A stretch of 40,668 nucleotides of DNA from Solirubrobacteraceae bacterium (lineage in GTDB: Bacteria > Actinomycetota > Thermoleophilia > Solirubrobacterales > Solirubrobacteraceae): contig JADGPP010000028.1 in assembly GCA_017882375.1 (NCBI GenBank), forward strand, positions 1-40,668, in the 5' to 3' direction. Positions within the stretch are counted from its first letter, which is position 1. Each line of letters starts with the position of its first letter. Under the pieces are notes generated by a model. It worked only from the letters and a program-made list of their open reading frames with translations. It made no database searches and had not been told where the DNA came from. Position numbers and translations under genes: made by a program. This document shows, piece by piece, positions 4,954-12,185 of this stretch.

Positions 4954-5036
4954 TCGGCCAGCGTGGCGACCGGGAATCGTCGCAGGCGAGCGACCCCGAC
5001 CCGCGTAATCGACAGCCAGGACGACCATAGGATCCT

Positions 5037-5062
5037 CCCGAGATATGTCCCGAACTCCGCAA
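5037..5062. repeat. 26-bp motif, copy 1 (integration-junction signature)
   Basis: This motif matches 8452-8477 at 23 of 26 positions. Each copy ends exactly 76 nt before the first base of a tRNA-Thr remnant. The shared spacing suggests both are the edge of related integrated elements, such as the tail of an integrase gene or an attachment arm. No intact integrase adjoins it. Confidence 0.6.
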
Positions 5063-5137
5063 GTCTAAGATGATCTGAGAGACGCTGCTGGTCGCTGATG
5101 TGGCTCGCTGGACCCGATATGGCGGGCTGCGATGCGA

Positions 5138-5179
5138 CTGGTAATGAAGGGGTCCGGGGTTCGAGTCCCCGCGTCGGCT
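5138..5179 (+). other. tRNA-Thr 3' fragment (GGT anticodon), likely old att site
   Basis: The fragment begins at a seven-base anticodon loop (CT-GGT-AA). It continues with TGAAG, a five-base variable loop, a perfect T-arm (CGGGG/CCCCG around TTCGAGT) and the acceptor strand CGTCGGC plus discriminator T. No 5' half precedes it: the bases before the loop do not pair with TGAAG. This is the geometry left when an element integrates into a tRNA gene and carries a copy of its 3' end. Confidence 0.75.
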
Positions 5180-5329
5180 CTGGGAAATGCCCTGCAAGTA
5201 CGTGGGATAGGTTGCGCAGTCCGCCGGCTGTCGTGCCAGCGCCGGAGGGCTCGGCTTGGCGGCCGGCGGCGAGCCTGGGGTCGGAGTACGCTTGCCAGGT
5301 CCAAGAAGAACCACGTTCTGGAGGTGAGC

Positions 5330-5884
5330 ATGGCCGTACGCACCACGCCGTTCGTCGCTGCAGGGACCTGGGCGGTCGATCCCGCGCATTCGAACGTCAC
5401 GTTCTCGGTCAAGCACATGGGCATCGCCAACGTGCGCGGGAAGTTCACCGGGTTTGAGGGTACGCTCGAGGTCGGCGAGGACCTCGCCAACTCCAGGGCG
5501 CGTGGCAAGGTCAAGGTGGCGTCGATCGACACCACCGAGGAGGGGCGCGACGCGCACCTGCGCTCGCCGGACTTCTTCAACGCTGAGCAATACCCGGAGA
5601 TCACGTTCGAGTCCACGCGCGTGGAGCCCATCGACGAGGGGTCGTCGCACATCTTCGGCAACCTGACGATGCACGGCGTCACTCGTGAGGTGAAGCTCGC
5701 TGTCGTCCTGCAGGGGACCGACACCGACCCGTGGGGCAACGAGCGCACCGGCCTCGAGGCCGTCGGTACGCTGAAGCACAGCGACTTCGACCTGAAGTTC
5801 AACCAGGCGCTCGGCAGCGGCAACGTGCTAGTCGGCGACAGGGTGAAGATGTCGCTCGACATCTCCGCGGTCAAGCAGGATTGA
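5330..5884 (+). CDS. YceI family protein
   Basis: This is a 184-aa YceI-like protein with an ATG start and a strong GGAGGTG ribosome site at 5320-5326. The family forms a lipocalin-like barrel that holds long isoprenoid or amphipathic ligands. The sequence shows the expected order of motifs: GTWAVDPAHSNVTFSVKHMGIANVRGKF at the start, ARGKVKVASIDTTEEGRDAHLRSPDFF in the middle and FGNLTMHGVTREVKL near the end. No signal peptide is visible, so this member is probably cytoplasmic. It lies between the first and second tRNA-Thr fragments and so may have arrived with an integrated element. The exact ligand is unknown. Confidence 0.92.
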   Translation: MAVRTTPFVAAGTWAVDPAHSNVTFSVKHMGIANVRGKFTGFEGTLEVGEDLANSRARGKVKVASIDTTEEGRDAHLRSPDFFNAEQYPEITFESTRVEPIDEGSSHIFGNLTMHGVTREVKLAVVLQGTDTDPWGNERTGLEAVGTLKHSDFDLKFNQALGSGNVLVGDRVKMSLDISAVKQD

Positions 5885-6012
5885 CCACTCGGGATTGGCG
5901 GAGCGCCCGACCTTGCGAGGTGGCGGCGGAGTCGCGCCGCTCGCCGCTCCACGCTCTGACGGCACGCTGGTGCGCGCAGTTCTTAGCCTCCCCCGGCCAA
6001 CCTGATCGCGCG

Positions 6013-6552
6013 ATGCTGGTCGCCATGAGGGTTTCCTCCGCCTTGGCCGTGGTCGCGGTCATCTTGCTAGCGAGCGGGTGCGGCGGCTCGGTGTCCATCA
6101 ACGACAAAGGGCAGATGGCCGTGGGTGAGAAGACCCTCGAAGTGGCGTCTCTGCCGTTCACGTTCAGCTATCCCGGCTCCTTCCAGGAAGCGACGGATGC
6201 AAGCGCCAAAGCGACGCACTCCGTCGCCGTCGTGGGAATACCCAGCGAAGACTCCTACATTGCCGTTCACCACAACGGGAGTGCCCCGATGTCCCTGGAC
6301 GCCCTCGAAGCGCAGGCACGCCGAGCGCTGGGGAGCAGCGTGACGGGCACCCGGCGTGCGCGCCACGGGGGGATCGAGATGGTCGCGGTGACGACGCGGG
6401 TGGCCGGGGGAGGGGATCTCAGCGCGACGATGAACGGGTTCTCCACCGCCCAGGACACGTGGCTGATCGAGTGCCGCTCCAATCTCGCGAACCGCAAGCT
6501 CATGGCGCGGTGGTGCTCGCATGCGCTCGACTCGTTGACGCTGCGCAAGTAG
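6013..6552 (+). CDS. Putative lipoprotein
   Basis: This secreted lipoprotein of about 179 aa starts at ATG 6013 or, four codons later, at ATG 6025. The N terminus is a classic lipoprotein signal (MRVSSALAVVAVILLASGC), with lipid attachment expected on the Cys of LASGC. The mature part contains LPFTFSYPGSFQEAT, a segment resembling PsbP/LpqN-type folds found in actinobacterial lipoproteins, and two further Cys residues (IECRSN and RWCSHA) near the C terminus that could form a disulphide. Function is unknown. It follows YceI on the same strand with a gap of about 130 bp and is enclosed with it between tRNA-Thr fragments. Confidence 0.75.
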   Translation: MLVAMRVSSALAVVAVILLASGCGGSVSINDKGQMAVGEKTLEVASLPFTFSYPGSFQEATDASAKATHSVAVVGIPSEDSYIAVHHNGSAPMSLDALEAQARRALGSSVTGTRRARHGGIEMVAVTTRVAGGGDLSATMNGFSTAQDTWLIECRSNLANRKLMARWCSHALDSLTLRK

Positions 6553-6719
6553 GTCCGCAGCGCCGGTCGCTCCGTCGTCTCCGTAGATTGGTGGTGGAAG
6601 GCTATGGAAGCCTCAGCGGTCACCAGAGGACCCGCAGAGGCCGGTAGGCTGGCGCAGAACGCCGCGGAATTGCTGCGTTCCTCATGATCCGGCCCGCAGA
6701 GATCGCCAGCTGCTCGCTC

Positions 6720-6761
6720 CTCGTAATGAAGGGGTCCGGGGTTCGAGTCCCCGCGTCGGCT
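6720..6761 (+). other. tRNA-Thr 3' fragment (CGT anticodon), likely old att site
   Basis: The 39 nt from GTAATG to the discriminator T are identical to those of the copy at 5138-5179. The loop here reads CT-CGT-AA, so the parent gene would be tRNA-Thr(CGT). No 5' half is present. It marks the end of the 5.1-6.7 kb segment and the start of the next. Confidence 0.75.
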
Positions 6762-6958
6762 TGAAGAAGGGCCCGCACATTGTGGCGATTACTAAGGGAA
6801 GTCCACTGGCAGTGGGACTTGTCGGCGGCCAGAGTTCGCGCGGCCCGCAGATGCGCTTTGCCCGGCTTTCGGCGCCTAACTCTCGGCGGTACGGATACCT
6901 GGGCGCGTCGCCGAGCGGTGCTCGCGTCGGAAACGAAGCACTGGGGCGTCTACAGATG

Positions 6959-7650
6959 AAACGTCTTAGCTTGACAAGCGCCGCGCTCCTCGCTGCGTTC
7001 TTGACGGTCGCGGCCGCGACTTGGGCCGCCGCAGGTATCAAGGCGTGCGTGCCAAAGAAGGAAGCAAGCACCTTCCTCACGCCCAAGCACGGCAAGTGCA
7101 GAAAGGATACAAGCTGACGACGCTGGGCCAGGAAGCCAAAGAAGGCAAGCAGGGAGCGGAAGGGAAGGCGGGGCCGGCCGGCCAAGCGGGGGCTGACGGC
7201 AAGGCGGGGGCTGAAGGCAAAGAAGGACCAGAAGGCGGTGCCGGCTTCTCAACCGAACAGCGCGAAAAGCTCAAAGCGATCCTCCCCTACATCAAATACA
7301 CAGCCTCGGGCATCGCAGGAAAGCCCACGATCGTGTTCTCCGGCGTCAACGTGCAGGTCGTCGACGGCGAAGGGAAAACCGAATCGGACGTGATCCTCGA
7401 TGAAGAAGAGGAATTCACGAGTGTCGGTGGCATGGTCATGGGCTATTCCAACACCATCGCCGCTCCCTTTGCCACGGTGACCGGGGGAGAGTTCAACGCT
7501 GTCAGCGGAGACGACGGGTCGGTCGGCGGCGGGGAGTTGAATTCAGACACTCTCCCGAGCAAGTACGGGGTGACGGTAGCCGGAGCGGCGGGGCGTTCAA
7601 CGAAGCGAGCGGGCGAGGCCGCCACCCGCGCTGCGGCGTGCCGTCGCCTG
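6959..7650 (+). pseudogene. Collagen-like surface protein, frameshifted
   Basis: The start (MKRLSLTSAALLAAFLTVAAATWAAAG) is a signal peptide followed by IKACVPKKE and a Cys-containing head. After CRK the frame stops at 7117, but the next frame continues with GYKLTTLGQEAKEGKQG, a Gly-x-x collagen-like stretch, and KLKAILPYIKYTASGIAGKPTIVFSGVNVQVV. This order is typical of a large actinobacterial surface-protein family. Loss of one G in AAGGGA near 7105 explains the break. A second shift near 7585 separates VTVAG from GAFNEASGR, part of the SGG/ASG hexapeptide repeats normally found downstream. The usual C-terminal repeat region is missing. A sequencing error could explain one break but hardly both and the truncation. 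Confidence 0.75.
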
Positions 7651-7676
7651 CCGCTCGATTGCGTCTCCGCGACAAC

Positions 7677-7693
7677 TGCTACGATGCGTAGCA
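7677..7693. promoter_or_regulatory. Operator/-10 of the Phd-VapC module
   Basis: A perfect inverted repeat, TGCTACG-ATG-CGTAGCA, ends 4 nt before the antitoxin ATG. It overlaps a TACGAT -10 box (7680-7685). Type II antitoxins commonly repress their own operons at such sites. Confidence 0.6.
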
Positions 7694-7697
7694 ACTC

Positions 7698-7976
7698 ATG
7701 GACAATCACACGATCCCGCAGAGAGAGCTTCGCAACAACGTCGCGGAGGTATTGCGTCGCGCGGAGGCCGGCACAGAGTTCACGATCACGGTGCGTGGTC
7801 GTCCAGTCGCGCGGCTCGGCCCAGCGGAGCGCCCCCACGAGCGTCGTTTGGATGTCGACTGCGATACGTTTCGGGCGATCCTCGCTGCGACGCCCGTTGA
7901 CGACGGTTACGGGGCCGACGTTGCCGCTGCGCGGGCCGAGGAGGAACCGGCAGGCGATCCCTGGGATCGTTCTTGA
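7698..7976 (+). CDS. Phd/YefM-type antitoxin
   Basis: This is a 92-aa antitoxin. Its N terminus (MDNHTIPQRELRNNVAEVLRRAEAGTEFTITVRGRPVARL) follows the Phd/YefM DNA-binding fold, including the RPVARL strand. The acidic, flexible C-terminal half (DDGYGADVAAARAEEEP, then PWDRS) is where such proteins bind and cover the toxin. Its stop overlaps the toxin start by four bases (TTGA), so translation is coupled. Autoregulation is likely through the palindrome immediately upstream. The module lies between the second and third tRNA-Thr fragments, which fits carriage on a mobile element. Confidence 0.88.
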   Translation: MDNHTIPQRELRNNVAEVLRRAEAGTEFTITVRGRPVARLGPAERPHERRLDVDCDTFRAILAATPVDDGYGADVAAARAEEEPAGDPWDRS

Positions 7977-8365
7977 GCGGAGCGCTGCTCGATACCTCGG
8001 TGCTTATCGGCGGTTTCGAGCCGTCGCAGGTGGAGCTGCCGGCGACGATGGCCATCTCGGTGATCACTCTGGGGGAGCTGCGCGCGGGCGTGCGGCTGGC
8101 CAGGGATCCGGCTGCGCGCGCTGCTCGCCAGACTAGATTGAACGCCGTCCGCGATCTCTTTGAGCCCATTGCCGTCGATGAGGTGGTGGCCGAGCACTAC
8201 GGGGACATACTCGCCGCTGCCCGGTCGGCTGGACGGAGCAGTAAGGCGACCGACGTGCTGATAATCGCGACCGCCGCAGCCACCGGACGCGTGCTCCACA
8301 CGCTCGACAAGCGTCAGGCCGCGCTGGCCGAGGTCGCTGGTATCCCACTCCAGACCAGCGGCTGA
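7973..8365 (+). CDS. vapC: VapC-type PIN-domain toxin
   Basis: This is a 130-aa PIN-domain ribonuclease toxin. The four acidic metal ligands are visible: Asp in ALLDTSVLI, Glu in TLGELRAG, Asp in SKATDVLIIATA and Asp in HTLDKRQ. VapC toxins cleave tRNA or rRNA when freed from the antitoxin. The start is TTG at 7973, inside a TTGA overlap with the antitoxin stop. The length is normal for the family and the gene looks intact. Confidence 0.9.
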   Translation: MSGALLDTSVLIGGFEPSQVELPATMAISVITLGELRAGVRLARDPAARAARQTRLNAVRDLFEPIAVDEVVAEHYGDILAAARSAGRSSKATDVLIIATAAATGRVLHTLDKRQAALAEVAGIPLQTSG

Positions 8366-8451
8366 GAGGATCGCACGCAACCGATGATCCCTCGGCTTGC
8401 GTGAGAGCTCGGCCCGTCCGAGGTCGCGCTTGCACGCGACAGAAGTCGTGT

Positions 8452-8477
8452 CCCGAAGTATGTCCCGGACTCCGCAA
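8452..8477. repeat. 26-bp motif, copy 2 (integration-junction signature)
   Basis: This is the partner of 5037-5062, with 23 of 26 identical positions and the same 76-nt offset to the next tRNA-Thr fragment. Reading frames through the two copies conserve YVP[ND]SA on the plus strand, which could be a recombinase tail, but this is not proven. Confidence 0.6.
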
Positions 8478-8552
8478 ATGTGAGGTCACTTGGGCGCACC
8501 GGAGGCGACTAGATAGCGCTCAGAACAACCAATATCACGGGATCTGGAGCCA

Positions 8553-8578
8553 CTCGTAATGAAGGGGTCCGGGGTTCG
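8553..8578 (+). other. tRNA-Thr 3' fragment (CGT anticodon), truncated
   Basis: This is the third copy. It is identical to the fragment at 6720 up to TTCG in the T-loop and then ends abruptly at 8578. The following DNA (TCCATCACAACTCC) is unrelated and leads to an IS3 remnant, so a later rearrangement probably cut it. Confidence 0.65.
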
Positions 8579-8624
8579 TCCATCACAACTCCTCTCAGCC
8601 GAGGCGTTGCAACGACCAGTTGAA

Positions 8625-8840
8625 TCCGCCCAATATGGTTCGCTCGGCTCCGGCCAGCAGGCTCGTGACGCAGGGATCGCGGTGTCGATGGGATCAAAGG
8701 GCAATGTCTACGACAAGGCCGTCGCCGAGAGCTTCTTCGCAACGATCAAGAAGGAGCTGGTTCACCGCCAATCATGGCCGAGCAGACGCCACCTGTCCTC
8801 CGCCGACTTCGAGTACATCGAGGCGTTCTACAACCAACAG
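8625..8840 (+). pseudogene. IS3-family transposase (OrfB) C-terminal remnant
   Basis: The reading frame shows AQYGSLGSGQQARDAGI, then VSMGSKGNVYDKAVAESFF, then KKELVHRQSW and FEYIEAFYN. This is the hallmark end of the IS3-group integrase core, including the catalytic Glu in AES. The first two-thirds of the transposase and the usual RRHSALGYLSP ending are absent. A CGTTGCAACG palindrome lies just upstream (8604-8613). The piece cannot transpose. Confidence 0.75.
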
Positions 8841-8841
8841 A

Positions 8842-8965
8842 GCCCTCTGGCAAGCGCATCGAGTGGAACGGCATGGACGTCATCCCGTTCCAGGCGGGCA
8901 AGGTCAAGCGCAAGGACGTTTACTCGGACTCGGTTTCGATCCTCCGTCAGGTTGGGCTGCTGTAG
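8842..8965 (+). pseudogene. NTF2-like/SnoaL-type protein, C-terminal fragment
   Basis: Immediately after the IS3 fragment, a different frame reads GKRIEWNGMDVIPF, then QAGKVKRKDVYSDSVSILRQ and VGLL before a stop. This is the last strand and helix of NTF2-like polyketide-cyclase or ketosteroid-isomerase-like proteins (the pattern WxGxDVxxFxxGKxxxKDVYSD). The N-terminal two-thirds are missing. The join with the IS3 piece probably marks a deletion. Confidence 0.6.
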
Positions 8966-9073
8966 CCCTCCCGGCGGGATCTGCGCCTTTGCCGCGGGCA
9001 CGTCAATGCGCCCCGCGATCTCGCGGGTACGAAGTTGGTATCCGCACTGAAGCGGGGAGGCTGCTGCGCCCAA

Positions 9074-10085: not shown

Positions 10086-12185
10086 CTATTTCACGATCGT
10101 GAAGCTCAGCGACCGCGGCGTGGAGCGCAAGCCGGCCGAGGTCGCGGTGATCGTCAGGGTGTAGTGCCCGGGTTTCAGCTTCTTGGTCGCCGACAGGCGG
10201 CCTGCGAAGCGCACCCTGTTGGCGCCGGCGTGGGCTTTGAAGGCGAGCGTCCCCACGATGACGGTGCGCGTGCACTTGGGTTTCTTGCGGTTCTTCTTCG
10301 ATACCGGGAGGCACTTCTTTGACACCTTGCGGCCCGCTGCGGGCCGTGTGAAGTCCAGCCGGACGGCCGCGGCCTCGTTGAGCGAGAAGCCAAAGGTCGT
10401 GCCGACCGGCGGCTTCTTCTTCTTGCTGATCTGCGCCAGCCTGTCGCCCGCACGCCACTTCGTGGCCGACTGGCTCAGGCCCACGACGGCCGGCCGCACG
10501 GGCGGCGGGCAGTTTGGCGGGCAACCGGACTGGGGCGGTGCTCCGGCGACGCTGAGGTTGACGGTCGCCGTGTTTGAGTCAAGCGCGCCGTCGTTGGCCT
10601 TGTAGCTGAAGCTGTCGGGGCCGGCGTAGCCCGCCACCGGCGTGTAGAGCACCGTCCCGGCCGCCTGGTCGATCGCCCCCAGGGTCCCGTGAGCGGGCGG
10701 GGTGCCAATAATCGCAAGTGTCAGCGGATCAAAGTTCAGGTCGCTGCAGCTGAGCGGGATCGTCGTAGGCGTGGCGGCCGCGACGTTGCGTGCGACCGCG
10801 GTGCACGACGGCGCGAGCTCACGCGCGAAGCGCACCACCGCATTGCTGTTGTGTGAGGCGACGTAGACGCTCGCACCGTCGGGGCTGACCGCCACCGACT
10901 GCGGGAAGTTCAGCCCGGCGGTCTGGTTGCCCGCACCGCACACGCTCCCGCCCGTGTTCTCGATGCACCCCGCCGGTGTCAGCGCGCCACCCGCCCCGCG
11001 GTTGAAGCGCACGACCGCATTGTCGTTGGCGGCAACGTAGACGCTCGCGCCGTCGGGGCTGACCGCCACCGACGCCGCGGTGCCCAGCCCGGCGGTCTGG
11101 TTGCCCGCACCGCACACGCTCCCGGCGGTGTTCTCGATGCACCCCGCCGGTGTCAGCGCGCCACCCGCCCCGCGGTTGAAGCGCACCACCGCGTTACTGC
11201 TGATGGAGGCGACGTAGACGCTCGCGCCGTCGGGGCTGACCGCCACCGACTGCGGGCCGAGCAGCCCGGCGGTCTGGTTGCCCGCACCGCATACGCTCCC
11301 GCCGGTGTTCTCAAAACACCCCGCCGGTGTCAGCGCGCCACCCGCCCCGCGATTGAAGCGCGCCACCGTGTTGCCGCTGGAGGCGACGTAGACGCTCGCG
11401 CCGTCGGGGCTGACCGCCACCGACTCGGGGCTGGGCAGCCCGGCGATCTGGTTGCCCGCCCCGCACACGCTCCCACCCGTGTTCTCAAAACATCCGGCCG
11501 GTGTCAGCGCGCCACCCGCCCCGCGATTGAAGCGCACCACCGCGCTACTAGAGATGGAAGCGGCATAGACGCTCGCGCCGTCGGGGCTGACCGCCACCGA
11601 CACAGAGCTGCCGAGCCCGGCGGTCTGGTTGCCCGCACCGCACACGCTCCCGCCGGTGTTCTCGATGCACCCCGCCGGAGTCAGCGCGCCACCCGCCCCG
11701 CGGTTGAAGCGCACCACCGCGCTACTGCCGATGGAGGCGACGTAGACGCTCGCACCGTCGGGGCTGACCGCCACCGAGAACGCGCCGAGCAGCCCGGCGG
11801 TCTGGTTGCCCGCACCGCACACGCTCCCGCCGGTGTTCTCGATGCACCCCGCCGGTGTCAGCGCGCCATCCGTCCCGCGGTTGAAGCGCACCACCGCGTT
11901 ACTGCTGGGGGAGGCGGCGTAGACGCTCGTGCCGTCGGGGCTGACCGCCACCGAGAACGCGCCGAGCAGCCCGGCGGTCTGGTTGCCCACACCGCACACG
12001 CCCCCGCCCGTGTTCTCAAAACACCCCAGCGGCGTCAGCCCGCCCAGCGACGGCGGCACCGCCCACGCTGACGGCACCACAACCGAGAGCCCCACGAGCA
12101 CGCCCGCCAGCACCCAGCCCCGACGAGCCAGGAGCGACTTCCGTTCCCCGAGCAAAATGAACAAGATCAACCATCCTACGCGCAA
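10086..12185 (-). CDS. Secreted seven-repeat beta-propeller protein
   Basis: This is a protein of about 700 aa that starts near 12185 (TTG; nearby starts are possible). A signal peptide precedes seven repeats of 59 residues, each with GCxENTGGxVCGxGNQTAG, SVAVSPDGASVYVAS and AVVRFNRG. Seven SPDG-type blades fit one closed beta-propeller of the YVTN/lactonase-like class. Two Cys per repeat could form disulphides outside the cell. A cadherin-like block follows (GYAGPDSFSYKANDGALDSNTATVNLSV), then a Lys-rich linker and a terminal module (VRFAGRLSATKKLKPGHYTLTITATSAG) common in this group of actinobacteria. It is probably a surface or secreted binding protein; the ligand is unknown. Confidence 0.85.
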   Translation of the reverse strand: MRVGWLILFILLGERKSLLARRGWVLAGVLVGLSVVVPSAWAVPPSLGGLTPLGCFENTGGGVCGVGNQTAGLLGAFSVAVSPDGTSVYAASPSSNAVVRFNRGTDGALTPAGCIENTGGSVCGAGNQTAGLLGAFSVAVSPDGASVYVASIGSSAVVRFNRGAGGALTPAGCIENTGGSVCGAGNQTAGLGSSVSVAVSPDGASVYAASISSSAVVRFNRGAGGALTPAGCFENTGGSVCGAGNQIAGLPSPESVAVSPDGASVYVASSGNTVARFNRGAGGALTPAGCFENTGGSVCGAGNQTAGLLGPQSVAVSPDGASVYVASISSNAVVRFNRGAGGALTPAGCIENTAGSVCGAGNQTAGLGTAASVAVSPDGASVYVAANDNAVVRFNRGAGGALTPAGCIENTGGSVCGAGNQTAGLNFPQSVAVSPDGASVYVASHNSNAVVRFARELAPSCTAVARNVAAATPTTIPLSCSDLNFDPLTLAIIGTPPAHGTLGAIDQAAGTVLYTPVAGYAGPDSFSYKANDGALDSNTATVNLSVAGAPPQSGCPPNCPPPVRPAVVGLSQSATKWRAGDRLAQISKKKKPPVGTTFGFSLNEAAAVRLDFTRPAAGRKVSKKCLPVSKKNRKKPKCTRTVIVGTLAFKAHAGANRVRFAGRLSATKKLKPGHYTLTITATSAGLRSTPRSLSFTIVK
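10860..12040 (-). repeat. Tandem 177-bp repeats inside the propeller gene
   Basis: Seven tandem units of 177 bp (59 codons) are nearly identical in long blocks; for example, the stretch encoding SVAVSPDGAS recurs almost unchanged. High nucleotide identity implies recent amplification or continuing gene conversion. Confidence 0.85.

What the first reader, a model, noticed from the sequence alone, without database searches (positions are those of the whole stretch)
5037..8578. Tandem tRNA-Thr 3' fragments with a second motif at a fixed 76-nt offset
Fragments at 5138, 6720 and 8553 share 26-39 identical bases of a tRNA-Thr 3' half. At two of them a 26-bp motif (23/26 identical) ends exactly 76 nt upstream. 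Chance does not explain the common spacing. It suggests serial integration of related elements at a tRNA-Thr gene, leaving fused attachment junctions that bracket YceI-lipoprotein and collagen-TA segments.
Basis: partly seen in the sequence, partly recalled or inferred. Interest (0 to 1): 0.7.

Follow-up and report, generated by a model that had tools for sequence, protein, structure and literature searches.

The report
Tandem tRNA-anchored mobile element junctions
The repeated tRNA pieces are scars left where several mobile DNA elements inserted one after another at the same tRNA gene, and the shared motif beside them is the end-marker of one element family whose recombinase was found in related bacteria; the arrangement is real and neat but of a known kind.

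Summary
It is not chance. In related genomes a tRNA 3' half follows the motif at about 38 of 43 places, nearly always 71-76 nt later, and the tRNA varies (Thr, Lys, Arg, Met). The motif is read as the distal arm (paired TGTCCCG) of a family of tyrosine-integrase elements. Complete members have an intact tRNA, a second TGTCCC-n5-TGTCCC arm, an integrase of about 400 aa, cargo, then this motif, 75 nt and the displaced tRNA half. Many copies are integrase-less and stand in tandem, including an 81-kb array on one 3.46-Mb contig (G079). Synteny with one relative puts the window at the tRNA-Thr(CGT) island. This is a new member of a known kind: tandem accretion of integrated elements and their decayed remnants.

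The parts
5033..5062 (+). The upstream TGTCCC copy is degraded here (TCCTCCCGAGATATGTCCCGAACTCCGCAA)
5063..5137 (+). 75-nt spacer between arm site and anticodon loop
5138..5179 (+). 3' half of tRNA-Thr from the anticodon loop to the 3' end (junction 1); anticodon position 34 reads G instead of C
5180..5210 (+). Left-end remnant of the next element (AAATGCCCTGCAAGTACGTGGG), resembling left ends of complete elements (AAAGCCCTGTAAACATGGGCTTT)
   Evidence: resemblance by eye
5330..5884 (+). YceI-like protein, cargo of segment 1
   Evidence: PF04264, E 6e-47
6025..6552 (+). Probable lipoprotein, cargo of segment 1
   Evidence: no Pfam match; lipobox-like LLASGCGG seen in the translation
6720..6761 (+). 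3' half of tRNA-Thr (junction 2), no TGTCCCG arm upstream: probably a different element type
6956..7620 (+). Collagen-like gene, split between two reading frames (probable pseudogene)
   Evidence: weak PF01391 match; ORFs
7698..7976 (+). Phd/YefM-type antitoxin, cargo of segment 2
   Evidence: PF02604
7973..8365 (+). PIN-domain (VapC-type) toxin, cargo of segment 2
   Evidence: PF01850
8448..8477 (+). Distal (right) arm site, second copy (GTGTCCCGAAGTATGTCCCGGACTCCGCAA)
8478..8552 (+). 75-nt spacer
8553..8578 (+). 3' half of tRNA-Thr (junction 3), cut off inside the T-loop after TTCG
8559..9050 (+). ORF with remnant of an IS-type transposase (rve domain) starting at the cut-off
   Evidence: PF13333
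34285..35565 (+). Gene syntenic with the region just downstream of the tRNA-Thr locus in relative G097: native flank
   Evidence: 71% aa identity over 408 aa
37623..39098 (-). Second syntenic gene (89% identity) of the native flank

Best explanation
The three tRNA-Thr pieces are attachment junctions left by mobile elements that inserted one after another at the tRNA-Thr(CGT) gene, with strand exchange in the anticodon loop. Each element brought its own tRNA 3' half, which rebuilt the gene and pushed the previous 3' half outward. The 26-bp motif is the distal arm of the element: a pair of TGTCCCG sites spaced about one helical turn apart and about 75 nt from the crossover, predicted to bind the N-terminal domain of a tyrosine integrase. 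In complete relatives that integrase is encoded right after the intact tRNA, behind a matching double site. In this window the elements have lost integrase and left arm, so they are fossils, or at most elements needing an integrase supplied in trans. Shown: the junctions, the fixed spacing, the second arm, the integrase and the tandem arrays. Inferred: that TGTCCCG binds the integrase, that insertion was stepwise, and that the elements are now immobile.
For: A tRNA half follows the motif at about 38 of 43 places in 28 family genomes and at 5 of 6 further places in other families of the order, one of them degraded. Spacing is 71-76 nt with two exceptions, for at least seven different tRNAs. All ten closest integrase homologues (70% identity or more), and 20 of 32 loci examined, have TGTCCC-n5-TGTCCC between the tRNA 3' end and the integrase start. 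Complete elements have tRNA, arm, integrase, cargo, arm and 3' half in order: L085, L034, L073, L082. Tandem arrays: four units in G075, three junctions behind one intact tRNA-Thr(TGT) over 81 kb on the single 3.46-Mb contig of G079, two in G330. Units without a full integrase keep both ends and a stump of the integrase gene. RecQ, tRNA-Thr, window gene 34285 and window gene 37623 are collinear in G097.
Against: The intact tRNA-Thr and the window are on different contigs, so the array is joined to its tRNA only by synteny with one relative. No integrase of at least 50% identity was found in this genome; the best match is a 46% partial one, 48% in a shorter one. The left arm is absent in the window. 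Fragment 2 has no motif. Five of 43 motif places have no tRNA half. Binding of the integrase to TGTCCCG is untested.
Confidence: 0.88

Rival explanations
1. The units are live, integrase-less cassettes: arm sites plus tRNA half form a portable attachment site, and an integrase encoded elsewhere moves them in trans, so tRNA genes act somewhat like integron platforms.
For: Short units with cargo only (0.7 to 2 kb) keep the distal arm and tRNA half. In G075 and G079 units with different cargo share nearly identical ends of about 240 nt (93-95%). Cargo includes toxin-antitoxin genes.
Against: In G075 and G079 the same units sit at the same tRNA, as expected from inheritance. Integrase stumps end at different codons, as in independent decay. 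Most short units, and those in the window, lack the left arm. No unit was shown in two different sites.
Confidence: 0.12
2. The motif is the conserved 3' end of an integrase gene (reading ...VSRNMSRTPQI-stop), so the junctions are integrase-gene tails.
For: At nearly all places one frame of the motif ends in a stop at the same position.
Against: The frame upstream is unrelated in every locus and no integrase was seen there; the integrase is at the other end, reading inward. The stop lies inside the conserved TGAG stretch.
Confidence: 0.03
3. Segmental duplications or draft-genome mis-assembly placed tRNA pieces and motif together.
For: The genome is a 172-contig draft and the tRNA-Thr region is split over contigs.
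Against: The same module is found in dozens of genomes at different tRNAs with unrelated flanks, including a single-contig assembly.
Confidence: 0.03

Closest known systems
Dehalococcoides ssrA-specific genomic islands (PMC3146451)
   Same: Tandem islands bounded by repeated 3' pieces of one RNA gene within 100 kb, a conserved short motif beside each repeat, and about half (15 of 31) without an integration module, read there as possible cis-mobilizable elements in accretion.
   Different: Target is tmRNA and the crossover is in the T-loop; the recombinase is a serine recombinase. Here tyrosine integrase, anticodon loop, many tRNAs.
ICE/IME/CIME tandem accretion (ICESt1 family; review PMC5704250)
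   Same: Decayed elements that keep attachment sites become stacked when new elements insert at the same site.
   Different: Conjugation genes were not looked for systematically here; the elements are small (0.7 to 15 kb) and carry mostly host-type or toxin-antitoxin cargo.
Mycobacteriophage tRNA attachment sites with arm-type pairs (PMC10865867)
   Same: Common core of about 43 bp from anticodon loop to tRNA 3' end, with pairs of putative arm-type sites flanking the core in attP.
   Different: Those are phages; relatives of this integrase in phages are below 60% identity (best listed hits 26-30%) and the arm motif was not found in viral contigs.
Islander tDNA islands (PMC4383910)
   Same: tDNA plus displaced fragment, anticodon-loop sublocation (2083 of 3919 islands).
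   Different: Islander requires an integrase and at least 2 kb; only 4 of its tandems reach three members, so integrase-less arrays like these would be filtered out.

Membership tests
tDNA genomic island (Islander definition) | Displaced tRNA fragment in the same orientation as, and 3' of, an intact tRNA | tested here: inconclusive
   Met in relatives L013, L034, L073, L085, G079. For the window the intact gene is on another contig; linked by synteny only
tDNA genomic island (Islander definition) | Integrase gene inside the island | tested here: not met
   No tyrosine integrase in window segments 5.2-8.6 kb; no PF00589 match listed on contig C151. Met in L085, L034, L073, L082
Cis-mobilizable element (CIME) | Lost integration and transfer genes | tested here: met
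   Window segments hold only YceI, lipoprotein, collagen-like and toxin-antitoxin genes
Cis-mobilizable element (CIME) | Retains functional attL and attR | tested here: inconclusive
   Right arm and core present at two junctions; no left TGTCCC arm in the window; function not testable
Tandem accretion | Several att-bounded units at one target site, same orientation | tested here: met
   Three junctions in the window, four in G075, three in G079
Lambda-like tyrosine integrase system with arm sites | Integrase with catalytic and SAM-like domains next to attP | tested here: met
   L085 integrase: PF00589 and PF14659, adjacent to the tRNA; not present in the window itself
Lambda-like tyrosine integrase system with arm sites | N-terminal domain binds repeated arm sites on both sides of the core | not testable with these tools
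   Repeats on both sides are present; binding needs footprinting

The most novel reading that the evidence does not exclude
A portable attachment module (arm pair, 75-nt spacer, tRNA 3' half) lets small integrase-less cassettes be collected in tandem at tRNA genes by a trans-acting integrase family whose members have switched between tRNA targets, giving an integron-like gene collection system in this order of Actinobacteria.
Probability: 0.12. Interest if true: 0.7.

Novelty: new member of a known kind. Interest (0 to 1): 0.38.

Why it matters
It gives a mapped element family (integrase, both arms, core) for an order of Actinobacteria known largely from drafts, in which a single short motif marks element ends at many tRNA genes. 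That makes integrase-less and decayed elements findable, which integrase-based island finders drop. The tree suggests changes of target between tRNAs, for example Lys-TTT and Arg-TCT, whose anticodon loops differ by one base, which is testable in vitro.

Tried and rejected
Motif as integrase C-terminus: rejected, no integrase upstream. Motif as phage feature: no exact match in viral contigs, only two distant integrase relatives there, phage and plasmid relatives all below 60%. Motif in all bacteria: an exact scan of 84,980 species genomes gave three hits, two of them Solirubrobacterales and one in Ruminococcus without the module. Class-wide sample: 18 of 399 genomes, all within the order. Synteny via the window's PII gene: not linked to tRNA-Thr in relatives. 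Literature on integrative elements in this class: nothing relevant found in the held library.

Full report
Observation. Window 5037-5062 and 8452-8477 agree at 23 of 26 positions and end 76 nt before 5138 and 8553. The pieces there and at 6720 are the 3' half of tRNA-Thr(CGT), from the anticodon loop to the 3' end, cut short in the third copy. The window is contig C151 of a 172-contig, 3.57-Mb draft genome; the intact gene is on C158. Two further halves are on C23 and C142.

The motif in relatives. A 30-nt form, GTGTCCCGnnnnATGTCCCGAACTSSGCAA with up to three mismatches, occurs in 28 of 146 family genomes and the reversed pattern in none. In an even sample of 399 genomes of the class (up to two mismatches) it occurs in 18, all in the same order. 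After the motif comes a tRNA 3' half at 34 of 43 places by script and at four more by eye (three truncated in the T-loop, one at a contig end); random positions give 1.8% with the same permissive detector. The anticodon loop begins 71-76 nt after the motif in all but two of the detected cases. The tRNA is Thr-CGT, Thr-TGT, Lys-CTT, Lys-TTT, Arg-ACG, Arg-TCT or Met. Six new places outside the family served as an independent check: five had the half, one of these degraded. In this genome itself the motif also precedes tRNA-Arg(ACG) halves on C159 and C114; C159 shows a 1.6-kb unit between the intact tRNA-Arg and its half.

The integrase. Complete elements show what the motif belongs to. In L085 an intact tRNA-Thr is followed by TGTCCCgaataTGTCCC, a 397-aa integrase reading away from the tRNA (PF00589, PF14659), cargo including an AbiEii-like gene (named by eye from its sequence), then the motif and a Thr 3' half. 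Homologues of this integrase stand directly behind tRNA genes with the same double site in between in 20 of 32 loci, including all ten closest; some more distant homologues have altered double sites such as GGTCCCGAAAAGGTCCCG. The motif and this double site are therefore read as the two arms. A tree of 31 integrases groups by target, but well-supported branches force at least three label changes each for Lys and Arg, so the family appears to have changed targets; the bootstrap had not fully settled.

Tandem arrays. G075 has four motif-plus-half units within 8.5 kb. G079, assembled as one contig of 3.46 Mb, has the intact tRNA-Thr(TGT), arm and integrase (one in-frame stop by the search) at 1.606 Mb and junctions at 1.5455, 1.5262 and 1.5248 Mb in the same orientation. 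Short units there keep both ends and a stump of the integrase gene, with different cargo inside. I read this as deletion of the middle, not a separate design.

Location of the window. In G103 the recQ gene directly precedes tRNA-Thr; in C158 recQ and tRNA-Thr are neighbours; in G097 recQ, tRNA-Thr, a homologue of window 34285 and a homologue of window 37623 follow each other in matching orientation. So the window is most likely the distal part of the tRNA-Thr(CGT) island plus native flank. This rests on one relative.

Mechanism. Most likely: anticodon-loop integration by a lambda-like tyrosine integrase, repeated at one tRNA, followed by decay. Segment 1 carries YceI and a lipoprotein, segment 2 a collagen-like gene and a Phd/PIN toxin-antitoxin pair. 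Since no integrase of this family at 50% identity or more was found in the genome, the copies here are probably fossils; absence in a 96%-complete draft is not proof.

Known background. Anticodon-loop tDNA islands, their tandem accretion and integrase-less members are established (PMC4383910, PMC5704250, PMC3146451), as are paired putative arm-type sites around a tRNA core in actinobacteriophages (PMC10865867). What seems undescribed, within the library searched, is this element family. I file it as a new member of a known kind.

Limits. Arm binding, excision and transfer were not tested. The five motif places without a tRNA half were not followed up. Cargo was annotated by Pfam only for the window and the L085 integrase; other cargo names come from reading translations.

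Noticed in passing
G000 C158 (L012) 7139-7177: A tRNA-Thr 5' half ending at the anticodon loop abuts recQ, with an intact tRNA-Thr 3.3 kb further on. G097 (L138) shows a native 5' half, a full variant tRNA and a chimeric variant-5'/native-3' copy. This looks like elements that bring a whole replacement tRNA, as in tRNA-dependent lysogeny (PMC10865867).
   Followed up: partly
window 8553-8578; L036 near 2570; L035 near 8420: Three displaced tRNA halves are cut at nearly the same T-loop position (GGTTC or GGTTCG). Possibly later insertions by T-loop-specific elements.
   Followed up: no
L010 (C23) 400-530, L011 (C142) 1920-2050, L138 6730-6823: A different shared right-end sequence precedes tRNA-Thr halves, suggesting a second element family at the same tRNA.
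   Followed up: partly
L012 10520-10870: Remnant of a tyrosine integrase C-terminus reading toward tRNA-Thr, of another type (recognised by eye from the translation).
   Followed up: no
window 6956-7620: Collagen-like gene appears split by a frameshift: signal peptide in one frame, Gly-X-Y repeats in another.
   Followed up: no
window 10676-12031: Seven tandem repeats of about 176 nt inside a 699-aa surface-protein-like ORF on the minus strand.
   Followed up: no
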